Part shown: positions 36,674 to 37,478 of the stretch, piece by piece
Layout of the letters: the number at the start of each line of letters is the position of its first letter
How positions within the stretch are numbered: position 1 is the stretch's first letter
Source: an uncultured Microbacterium sp.
GTDB lineage: Bacteria > Actinomycetota > Actinomycetes > Actinomycetales > Microbacteriaceae
Reading direction: 5' to 3'
Length of the DNA: 49,169 nucleotides
Assembly (NCBI RefSeq): GCF_947632095.1
Contig: NZ_CANROA010000014.1
Span: forward strand, 1-49,169
Notes under the pieces: generated by a model
What the model saw: only the letters and a program-made list of their open reading frames with translations
Told to the model about the DNA's origin: nothing
Database searches by the model: none
Position numbers and translations under genes: made by a program

Positions 36674-36963
36674 GGGCCTCTAGCTCAGTTGGCAGAGCAT
36701 CGGACTTCAACAAAATAGGAGCGCCCCGGGGGAAACCTCGGGGATGACACCACTCAAAGTCGGGGAACCCTTCCTGGTAAACCAGATGGCAATCCCGAGC
36801 CAAGCCGGACGCGAGTCCGGAAGGTGTAGAGACTGGACGGGTGGCACCTAAAGCGAAAGCTACGGTGAAGGGACAGTCCAGACCACGAACGTCTCCGGAC
36901 GGCGGTGAAAACCGAAGTGGTATGTTAATCCGCGGGTCATGGGTTCGAGCCCCATGGGGCCCA
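36674..36963 (+). tRNA. tRNA-Lys(TTT) interrupted by a group I intron
   Basis: Exon 1 is 36674-36707 (34 nt) and exon 2 is 36925-36963 (39 nt). Joined, they give a 73-nt tRNA: acceptor GGGCCTC with GGGGCCC (one G-U), D arm GCTC/GAGC, anticodon stem TCGGA/TCCGC, loop CTTTTAA with anticodon TTT, T arm ATGGG TTCGAGC CCCAT, discriminator A. Only CC of CCA follows, so CCA must be completed by the nucleotidyltransferase. The U27-C43 mismatch also occurs in the matching mycobacterial tRNA-Lys as I recall it. The intron separates nucleotide 34 from 35, so the anticodon itself is split and splicing is required for function. Standard tRNA finders may miss or truncate it. Confidence 0.95.
36708..36924 (+). 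other. Group I intron (IC3-like) in the tRNA-Lys anticodon
   Basis: A 217-nt intron without an internal ORF. The 5' exon ends in U and the intron ends in G, as group I splicing needs. P1: exon CUU plus C36708 pair with GGAG at 36718-36721 (with the U-G wobble at the splice site). P2: CCCCGGGG/CCTCGGGG with GAAA loop (36724-36743). P3: ACACC (36747-36751) with GGTGT (36823-36827). P4: CGGGG near 36761 with CCCGA (36794-36798); Q region AATCCCGAGCC, 36791-36801. R: GTGTAGAGACTG (36824-36835). S: AAGGGACAGTCC (36868-36879). P7: GACTG with CAGTC. P9: ACCAC (36882-36886) with GTGGT (36917-36921), enclosing CGGT-GAAA-ACCG. Core segments read almost identically to the cyanobacterial tRNA-Leu(UAA) intron. 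Confidence 0.95.
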
Positions 36964-37001
36964 CCGCATAAGACGTCAGTGCTTGGCGTTACGGTGCTCG
37001 C

Positions 37002-37478
37002 ATGAAGATGTGCGGCACCTGTTCTCAGAAAAAATCCTTCTCCGAATTCAATCGGCAAACCTCGCGCCCTGATGGCTTGCAAGAGGTTTGCCGTAGTTGC
37101 AACAGGGCCTCTTCCCGTGCCTATCATCAGCAGAATCGTGAGCACCATCTGCGCGTAATTCGCGCTCGAACGTCAGCGCAGCGCCGGCGGAACCTGGACT
37201 ACGTCTTTACGCATCTCCAATCACATTCCTGCGTCGACTGCAGTAACGCAGACATACGCGTGCTCGATTTCGATCACCGCCCCGGACAGACGAAACGTGC
37301 CGCAGTCATGACACTTGTCCACGACGGATACAGTCTGCAGGCTGTATCCGCAGAGATAGAAAAATGCGATGTGCGATGCCGCAACTGTCACGCGATCATC
37401 ACCTATGAGCGAGCAGGCTCGACCTGGCGACTCACCGCTGTTTCTTCATCTGCTGCAGCTGCGCGCATCGAGCTATAG
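37002..37478 (+). CDS. Free-standing HNH homing-type endonuclease
   Basis: A 158-residue zinc-ribbon HNH protein. The N-terminal ribbon has C4-x2-C7 and C30-x2-C33 with the family FSEFNRQTSRPDGLQEVC spacing. A basic helix (RARTSAQRRRN, about 54-64) precedes the HNH core: C77-x2-C80, VLDFDH with H92, and CRNCH with C126, C129 and H130. This kind of protein is typical of phage- and intron-associated homing endonucleases. The DNA is visibly less GC-rich than its neighbours (many A/T third positions), which suggests transfer. It lies 38 bases behind the split tRNA-Lys. A second ATG at 37008 is possible; no strong ribosome site is seen. TACGGT at 36990-36995 could be a -10 of a nearly leaderless transcript. 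Confidence 0.85.
   Translation: MKMCGTCSQKKSFSEFNRQTSRPDGLQEVCRSCNRASSRAYHQQNREHHLRVIRARTSAQRRRNLDYVFTHLQSHSCVDCSNADIRVLDFDHRPGQTKRAAVMTLVHDGYSLQAVSAEIEKCDVRCRNCHAIITYERAGSTWRLTAVSSSAAAARIEL

What the first reader, a model, noticed from the sequence alone, without database searches (positions are those of the whole stretch)
36674..36963. Group I intron splitting the anticodon of tRNA-Lys(UUU) in an actinobacterium
The tRNA can only be completed by removing 36708-36924. The join restores the loop CUUUUAA. The 217-nt insert has a full group I core: P1 with a U-G at the splice site, P2, P3, P4, P7, P9, recognisable Q/R/S segments and a terminal G. Its position, after nucleotide 34, is the same as in the cyanobacterial tRNA-Leu(UAA) intron, and the Q-R segments (AATCCCGAGCC, GGAAGGTG-AGAGACT) read almost identically to that intron as I remember it. 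That argues for descent of an IC3 intron with transfer to a different tRNA by recognition of the anticodon loop. I know of bacterial tRNA introns in Leu, Arg, Ile and fMet genes but not of one in tRNA-Lys; a search is needed. If this is the only tRNA-Lys(UUU) gene, lysine AAA decoding depends on splicing.
Basis: partly seen in the sequence, partly recalled or inferred. Interest (0 to 1): 0.95.

Follow-up and report, generated by a model that had tools for sequence, protein, structure and literature searches.

The report
Ribozyme intron splits lysine tRNA anticodon
In this actinobacterium a lysine tRNA gene is interrupted inside its three-letter anticodon by a group I intron that is predicted to splice itself out, so reading AAA codons would depend on a ribozyme, and a nuclease gene beside it, seen next to split copies but not next to the intact copies examined, likely helps the intron spread.

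Summary
The finding is real. Window 36674-36965 is a tRNA-Lys(UUU) gene whose anticodon is split after U34 by a 217-nt group I intron (36708-36924). Joined exons read as tRNA-Lys(UUU), and 28 base pairs co-vary across 42 related genes. Pattern scans found such introns in 42 tRNA-Lys genes of public genomes (Microbacterium, Nesterenkonia, Tsukamurella, Prauserella and others) and in 18 viral contigs, one of them Gordonia phage Daredevil. In a sample of 198 genomes of the genus, 16 carry it and none of the 16 matches the intact anticodon arm; 13 others carry a second, different group I intron at the same place in a different tRNA-Lys(UUU) gene. A free-standing HNH endonuclease gene, or a piece of one, lies beside 21 of these 29 genes and beside 0 of 30 loci with the intact arm; the HNHs beside both introns are one family. 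Best explanation: a self-splicing intron that also breaks the target of a linked HNH ('collaborative homing', known from cyanophage psbA). Splicing and cleavage are predicted, not shown. My literature searches listed no full-size group I intron in a bacterial tRNA-Lys; a 2014 review says phage introns known then were all in protein genes.

The parts
36674..36707 (+). 5' exon of tRNA-Lys(UUU), nucleotides 1-34, ends C32-U33-U34
   Evidence: exon join gives tRNA-Lys(ttt); nucleotide count 7+2+4+8+4+1+5+3 = 34
36708..36924 (+). group I intron, 217 nt, ends in the terminal G (36924)
   Evidence: Rfam RF00028 36.7 bits, E 4.1e-7; covariation in 42 rows
36925..36965 (+). 3' exon of tRNA-Lys(UUU), begins UUAAUCC (U35, U36, A37, A38 ...)
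36705..36721 (+). P1: C32-U33-U34-C(intron 1) at 36705-36708 pairs G-G-A-G at 36718-36721; U34.G is the splice-site wobble pair
   Evidence: structure; 99.4% of cells paired
36724..36743 (+). P2 with GAAA loop (36724-36731 / 36736-36743)
   Evidence: 5 of 8 pairs change on both sides
36750..36844 (+). P3 (36750-36755 / 36839-36844)
   Evidence: 99.2% paired, 2 of 6 pairs change on both sides
36760..36798 (+). P4 (36760-36764 / 36794-36798), enclosing P5
   Evidence: P4 invariant, 100% paired; inner P5 helix 4 of 4 pairs change on both sides
36805..36820 (+). P6 extension (36805-36810 / 36815-36820)
   Evidence: 4 of 6 pairs change on both sides
36831..36878 (+). P7, the expected guanosine-binding helix (36831-36834 / 36875-36878)
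   Evidence: invariant in 42 of 42 rows, so it says nothing for or against by covariation; guanosine-binding role is established knowledge of group I introns
36845..36867 (+). P8 (36845-36848 / 36864-36867)
   Evidence: outer helix 100% paired; of the inner three pairs one fails in 30 of 42 rows
36883..36920 (+). P9 with two inner hairpins P9a and P9b (GAAA loop)
   Evidence: 1 pair of P9, 3 of P9a and 2 of P9b change on both sides
37002..37478 (+). free-standing HNH endonuclease gene, 158 aa, 36 bp after the tRNA, same strand
   Evidence: phrog_2255 HNH endonuclease E 5.4e-30; no Pfam hit at 0.01, no usable NCBIfam or PDB match; linked to introns

Best explanation
This is a tRNA-Lys(UUU) gene split after U34 by a group I intron that is predicted to splice itself out with guanosine, and the HNH gene beside it is likely a homing endonuclease whose target the intron would destroy, so that the two would spread together. 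Splicing (inferred from structure): the intron pairs C32-U33-U34 with its guide GAG (P1, U.G at the cut), an outside guanosine bound in P7 attacks after U34, then U34 attacks after the terminal G36924, which joins the loop CUUUUAA. Spread (inferred from linkage): the HNH would cut uninterrupted tRNA-Lys genes near the anticodon; repair from an intron-bearing copy would carry exons, intron and HNH together; the intron would protect the donor gene. Because the guide needs only C-U-U before the cut, other tRNAs with C32-U33-U34 (Leu UAA, Arg UCU) would offer the same 5' site.
For: Structure: (28 co-varying pairs, 0 of 500 shuffles). In 60 of 60 rebuilt loci (42 host, 18 viral) the 5' exon ends GACTT (the search itself asked for TT and for GTTAAT). 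Dependence: in one sample of 198 genus genomes the 16 with the intron pattern and the 155 with the intact-arm pattern do not overlap; of 31 intron-bearing genomes searched for the intact arm 6 matched and none of their 7 places is a tRNA for ARAGORN. HNH linkage: 13 of 16 type-1 and 8 of 13 type-2 genes, pieces counted, versus 0 of the 30 loci given for the 155 (one of the 30, L151, is a half gene); Fisher p 8e-10 without correction for kinship. The HNHs of both introns are one family; the six full-length type-2 HNHs are one clade (99/99) among the type-1 HNHs. Whole-gene replacement: 4 of 16 intron genes have 5' exons GGGCCTTTAGCTCAATTGG.., seen in 0 of 30 loci with the intact arm; 2 of these 4 (G258, G693) and public loci with the same exons (L057, L063, L067, L068, L083) lie beside the fasciclin gene that also stands beside 16 of the 30. 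Of three phage HNH relatives opened, two sit in tRNA arrays.
Against: No splicing or cleavage data. The Rfam score is below its cut-off, the single-sequence fold is only moderately stable (z -2.22), and one inner P8 pair fails in 30 of 42 rows. HNH is absent from 3 of 16 type-1 and 5 of 13 type-2 genes, from 24 of the 42 public host Lys loci including all 6 Nesterenkonia loci (four of the 24 have under 400 bp of downstream DNA), and from 17 of 18 viral Lys loci. Some HNHs are pieces (L190, L192, L239) or broken in two (L184, L245). The HNH lies outside the intron, so hitchhiking is possible. Only 30 of the 155 intact-pattern genomes were opened, and not at random; HNH elsewhere in those genomes was not searched for.
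Confidence: 0.78

Rival explanations
1. The intron arrives with whole replacement tRNA-Lys genes on integrating elements and phages that use the anticodon arm of tRNA-Lys(UUU) as attachment site; the intron would hide that site in the replacement gene, and the HNH is secondary cargo.
For: Half-gene relics of an intronless tRNA-Lys lie on the same contig and strand as the intact intron gene in G782, G778 and G774. In G436 and G496 a three-gene recombinase module lies between the type-2 intron gene and a 3' half relic of the native gene. Phage Daredevil carries an intron-bearing tRNA-Lys next to an integrase.
Against: Fourteen of 21 public Microbacterium intron loci and 10 of 13 type-2 genes stand near the fasciclin gene of the native place, and 15 of 17 intron-bearing 20-kb regions searched show no clear second half gene (L380 has a weak 22-nt hit). 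In Prauserella G774 the relic 5' half does not match the 3' half of the intron gene, so a simple half-swap does not explain it. No excision or integration was observed.
Confidence: 0.3
2. An ordinary immobile group I tRNA intron, spread by rare reverse splicing or whole-gene recombination; the HNH gene is a chance neighbour kept by linkage.
For: Many intron genes lack an HNH; the guide needs only C-U-U, and the same core occurs in Leu, Lys and Arg tRNAs of viral contigs.
Against: HNH or a piece of it beside 21 of 29 intron genes of two different intron types and beside 0 of 30 loci with the intact arm; in type 2 the HNH is upstream and divergent in 6 and downstream in 2, so it was not inherited in one arrangement.
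Confidence: 0.22
3. The locus is a decaying tRNA, or encodes tRNA-Asn(GUU) as ARAGORN's intron mode prints.
For: ARAGORN intron mode calls Asn(gtt) in the window and in many relatives.
Against: The Asn call shifts both ends by one base and would break the P1 U.G and terminal-G rules; the rule-conforming join gives Lys(ttt), ARAGORN itself gives Lys(ttt) in G258, an intact tRNA-Asn(gtt) exists elsewhere, and exon stems co-vary.
Confidence: 0.02

Closest known systems
[quoted passage not shown] Paquin 1997, Rudi 2002, seen as references in papers read)
   Same: A tRNA-Leu(UAA) intron found here on plasmids sits after U34 and is 77% identical to the window intron; it joins the actinobacterial introns in the tree.
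   Different: Different tRNA (Lys), different phylum, linked HNH gene. No cyanobacterial sequence was compared here; its position after U34 and its motifs are recalled (PMC4033280, speaks of position 37/38 for most bacterial tRNA introns).
Azoarcus tRNA-Ile(CAU) and proteobacterial tRNA-Arg(CCU) introns
   Same: Small tRNA group I introns; overall layout recalled as alike (GAAA loops in P2 and P9, P8).
   Different: Other tRNAs and, as recalled, a different position in the loop. Not compared by sequence here.
F-CphI and the psbA intron of cyanophage S-PM2 ('collaborative homing', PMC6083498, passages read)
   Same: Free-standing endonuclease gene beside an intron-bearing gene; there the intron blocks cutting of its own gene.
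   Different: There: phage protein gene, Endo VII motif enzyme, biochemistry done. Here: cellular tRNA gene, HNH family, two introns sharing one HNH family, no biochemistry.
T4 SegB (free-standing homing endonuclease of the T4 tRNA region; seen in a reference list and an abstract start only)
   Same: Nuclease gene in a tRNA region.
   Different: No intron named there; family not compared.
[quoted passage not shown]
   Same: Names tRNA-Lys and group I.
   Different: Those inserts are 22-49 nt, too short for a group I core (my judgement), and in Lys(CTT).

Membership tests
Group I introns | Conserved core with P3, P4, P6, P7, P8 kept across relatives, with covariation | tested here: met
   P2, P3, P5, P6, P9 co-vary, P4 and P7 are invariant (no covariation evidence for those two)
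Group I introns | Recognised by the general Rfam group I model | tested here: inconclusive
   E 4.1e-7 but 36.7 bits against a cut-off of 50 for the window; the type-2 intron passes with 58.8 and 54.9 bits
Group I introns | P1 with U.G at the 5' splice site and a G at the 3' end | tested here: met
   P1 pairs counted; ends in 60 of 60 rebuilt loci, though the search rule itself asked for TT and G
Group I introns | Guanosine-dependent self-splicing | not testable with these tools
   no RNA or biochemical data
Subgroup IC3 | Subgroup-specific core features | not tested
   no subgroup model on hand; only kinship to a tRNA-Leu(UAA) intron shown
tRNA-Lys(UUU) gene | Joined exons read as tRNA with anticodon UUU | tested here: met
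Collaborative homing | Endonuclease gene outside but next to the intron-bearing gene | tested here: met
   36 bp in the window; 13 of 16 and 8 of 13 in the genus sample, pieces counted
Collaborative homing | Absent beside uninterrupted alleles | tested here: met
   0 of the 30 loci opened, of 155 genomes with the intact-arm pattern
Collaborative homing | Endonuclease cuts the uninterrupted allele near the insertion site but not the interrupted one | not testable with these tools
   needs purified protein
HNH endonucleases | HNH-type motif and family match | tested here: met
   phrog_2255 E 5.4e-30; F90 D91 H92 K98 and C126 N128 C129 H130 kept in 25 or 26 of 26; no Pfam hit at 0.01

The most novel reading that the evidence does not exclude
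Collaborative homing in cellular tRNA genes: two different group I introns took the same slot after U34 of tRNA-Lys(UUU), each teamed with one lineage of phage-type HNH endonuclease; the intron shields the gene from the HNH and from integrases that use the anticodon arm as attachment site, and the whole split gene moves between bacteria and phages as a replacement tRNA.
Probability: 0.45. Interest if true: 0.88.

Novelty: new variant of a known kind. Interest (0 to 1): 0.75.

Why it matters
It would make reading of AAA codons in a number of actinobacteria depend on a ribozyme, with no second UUU-reading lysine tRNA seen. It extends bacterial tRNA group I introns beyond the groups named in a 2014 review (cyanobacteria, alpha- and beta-proteobacteria; PMC4033280, passages read) and puts them in phage tRNA genes, against the statement in PMC3984707 (passages read) that all phage introns then known were in protein genes. 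Two introns at one site with one HNH family give a natural system to test how introns jump between tRNAs. Annotation tools can miss or misname these genes.

Tried and rejected
Two scans with a wrong second gap returned zero even for the known loci and mean nothing; the pattern was corrected, tested on the window and loci and rerun. The family-wide RF00028 search gave 2 of 398 genomes, but that sample lists only nine genomes of the genus, so it gives no genus frequency. A model in which an element's attP carries a 5' half plus intron was dropped: in N. alba the 3' half relic shows an intronless core and in Prauserella the halves do not match. The Asn(GUU) register was rejected. Phylum-wide RF00028 hits (62 of 396) were not traced to genes. 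The partial type-2 hits in G164 and G442 are 3' parts of tRNA-Lys(CTT).

Rows dropped: L053 (divergent) and L065 (no Lys join) were left out of alignment A1. Of 27 sample genomes with neither the intact-arm nor the type-1 pattern, 18 were searched further: 11 hold the type-2 intron, 7 stayed unresolved; the other 9 are 44-88% complete and were seen only in the type-2 search, without a hit. HNH rows under 110 aa and identical rows were left out of the tree (33 to 26).

Full report
Observation. The window holds GGGCCTCT..GGACTT at 36674-36707 and TTAATCCGC..GGGCCCACC at 36925-36965, separated by 217 nt. Plain ARAGORN finds only two Thr tRNAs in the window. Joined, the halves are called tRNA-Lys(ttt). 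Counting 7+2+4+8+4+1+5+3 nucleotides puts the insertion after nucleotide 34, inside the anticodon. Rfam Intron_gpI matches with E 4.1e-7 but 36.7 bits, below its cut-off of 50. ARAGORN's intron mode shifts the join by one base and prints Asn(gtt).

Structure test. Forty-two genes (window plus 41 relatives; L053 and L065 left out) were aligned with exons. A structure written from the window sequence (the anticodon-stem columns were corrected by one before counting) was counted: 78 pairs, 98.5% of cells standard, 28 pairs with changes on both sides, 0 of 500 shuffles as high on any measure; slid controls reach 31-47% paired. P4 and P7 never vary; P2, P3, P5, P6, P9, P9a, P9b and the tRNA acceptor and T stems co-vary. 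One inner P8 pair fails in 30 of 42 rows. Caution: the rows are related and the structure came from one of them. A plain fold gives z -2.22.

Distribution. The corrected pattern hit 43 loci in one scan of GTDB genomes; 42 of 43 rebuild to tRNA-Lys(ttt): 21 Microbacterium loci, 6 Nesterenkonia, 2 Tsukamurella, 2 Prauserella, 1 Phytoactinopolyspora, 1 Actinomyces, 4 Frankiales or Frankiaceae MAGs, 3 other Actinomycetota MAGs and 2 proteobacterial MAGs; the Chloroflexi MAG does not rebuild. The window's genus is inferred as Microbacterium because G258, told to be the same genus, has the contig length (54411) and the intron of Microbacterium sp. K24. In viral contigs 25 loci matched and 18 of 25 rebuild to Lys(ttt); one is Gordonia phage Daredevil, an isolated phage. 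These anticodons all start with U34, so C32-U33-U34 could serve one guide; this is inference.

Dependence on splicing. In one sample of 198 genus genomes, 155 match the anticodon arm GGACTTTTAATCCGCGGGT with up to 2 mismatches and 16 match the intron pattern; the two sets do not overlap. At least 2 of the 155 (G436, G496) are half-gene relics; only the 30 loci given for the 155 were opened, of which 29 are called tRNA-Lys(ttt). In 31 intron-bearing genomes searched for the intact arm with up to 1 mismatch, 6 matched and none of the 7 places is a tRNA for ARAGORN. In 34 long, mechanically chosen reading frames of the window AAA stands 27 times and AAG 218 times in 13637 codons. That tRNA-Lys(CUU) cannot read AAA is established knowledge. 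So AAA reading would depend on the spliced gene, unless another UUU-reading gene was missed.

Second intron. Of the 27 sample genomes with neither pattern, 18 of high quality were searched further; none holds GACTTTTAATC. A DNA search matched 11 of 18, and all 11 hold a different intron of 247-269 nt at the same position of a tRNA-Lys(UUU) with quite different exons. A search of all 198 found it in full in 13 (245-269 nt). Rfam scores two of them 58.8 and 54.9 bits, over the cut-off. Its 5' end resembles type 1 (mostly 81-85% over the first 52 query bases) while the rest differs; whether that is mosaicism or convergence is open. Seven of the 18 remain unexplained.

The HNH gene. 37002-37478, 36 bp after the tRNA, encodes 158 aa that match phrog_2255 HNH endonuclease (E 5.4e-30), no Pfam family at 0.01 and no usable NCBIfam or PDB entry. 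Homologues lie 37-152 bp downstream in 18 of 42 public host Lys loci. In the genus sample: 13 of 16 type-1 genes (L190 and L192 partial, L184 in two pieces), 8 of 13 type-2 genes (L239 a 24-aa piece, L245 in two pieces), and 0 of 30 loci with the intact arm and about 1.5 kb on each side (best E 0.84). Fisher p 8e-10 ignores kinship. In type 2 it is upstream and divergent in 6, downstream in 2. In a tree of 26 HNHs the six full-length type-2 ones are one clade (99/99) among the type-1 set, rooted at the midpoint only. Daredevil has a relative 453 bp from its split tRNA, on the other strand. Phage relatives number 194 records; of three opened, two lie among tRNA genes and one does not.

Whole-gene replacement. 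A fasciclin-domain gene (named by eye from its frame) stands near 14 of 21 public Microbacterium intron loci, 16 of 30 loci with the intact arm (loci of limited length) and 10 of 13 type-2 genes, so this is the native place. Yet 4 of 16 type-1 genes have 5' exons (GGGCCTTTAGCTCAATTGG..) that none of 30 loci with the intact arm has and that are the same as in Phytoactinopolyspora L070. Repair-driven conversion from a donor with a flanking nuclease would leave this; plain recombination could too.

Mobile elements. Intronless 5' half genes lie in four Nesterenkonia genomes and one Prauserella genome that also carry the intact intron gene (G760, G772, G778, G782 and G774), on the same contig and strand in three of them, with an integrase-family protein near the half gene in G782 and a near-identical frame in G778. 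In G436 and G496 a three-gene module separates the type-2 gene from a 3' half relic; two integrase-family proteins and a DUF6262 protein were identified in G436 and one integrase in G496. So the anticodon arm looks like an attachment hotspot, and replacement copies there carry introns. This may be a second reason why a split gene survives; it is an idea, not shown.

Kinship. The intron tree (60 rows, bootstrap not settled, long branches) joins the actinobacterial introns, the alphaproteobacterial MAG L053 and Daredevil (96/96), next to the plasmid tRNA-Leu(UAA) intron (98/94); the other viral Lys introns fall outside, as does the Rhizobiales MAG.

Literature. The listings of searches showed no paper on a full-size group I intron in a bacterial tRNA-Lys or in Actinobacteria tRNAs. 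Passages read: PMC3984707 (phage introns to date all in protein genes), PMC4033280 (tRNA group I introns in cyanobacteria, alpha- and beta-proteobacteria), PMC8450103 (tRNAscan-SE not designed to detect them), PMC5733544 (22-49 nt inserts), PMC6083498 (collaborative homing), PMC3073962, PMC7886860, PMC11878797; PMC7162821 has no 'intron' in its text. The library lacks most subscription papers, so priority is not proven.

Verdict. A real group I intron in tRNA-Lys(UUU), present in 16 of 198 sampled genomes of one actinobacterial genus and in phages, with a second intron and an HNH partner at the same site. New variant of a known kind.

Noticed in passing
L119, L121 (plasmids pCTX-M3 and pNCYU-24-74-2): A tRNA-Leu(UAA) gene with a group I intron (213 nt in L119) lies beside aac(3)-IId; 1272 plasmid records have a 60-80% identical match to the window query, of which two were opened. 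It may mark the donor genome of that resistance segment.
   Followed up: partly
L254-L329 and L094-L118 (viral contigs): Group I introns in viral tRNA-Leu(UAA) and tRNA-Arg(UCU) genes as well as Lys(UUU).
   Followed up: partly
L381 8880-12851 and L378: Three-gene recombinase module between the type-2 split tRNA-Lys and a 3' half relic of the native gene.
   Followed up: partly
L173 (Nesterenkonia alba): Downstream of the split tRNA-Lys stand two 3' half relics of tRNA-Lys, with reading frames between that look like toxin-antitoxin pairs (named by eye).
   Followed up: no
L166, L169, L172, L174, L171: 5' halves of an intronless tRNA-Lys(UUU) in Nesterenkonia and Prauserella genomes that also carry an intact split gene.
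   Followed up: partly
G406, G564, G475, G296, G423, G507, G492: High-quality genus genomes with no intact GACTTTTAATC and no type-1 or type-2 intron found: perhaps a third arrangement of tRNA-Lys(UUU).
   Followed up: no
phylum sample: 62 of 396 Actinomycetota genomes have RF00028 hits, some several per contig; host genes not traced.
   Followed up: no
L060, L064, L082, L378, L381: A metallophosphoesterase-like gene (named by eye) recurs upstream of split tRNA-Lys genes of both intron types.
   Followed up: no
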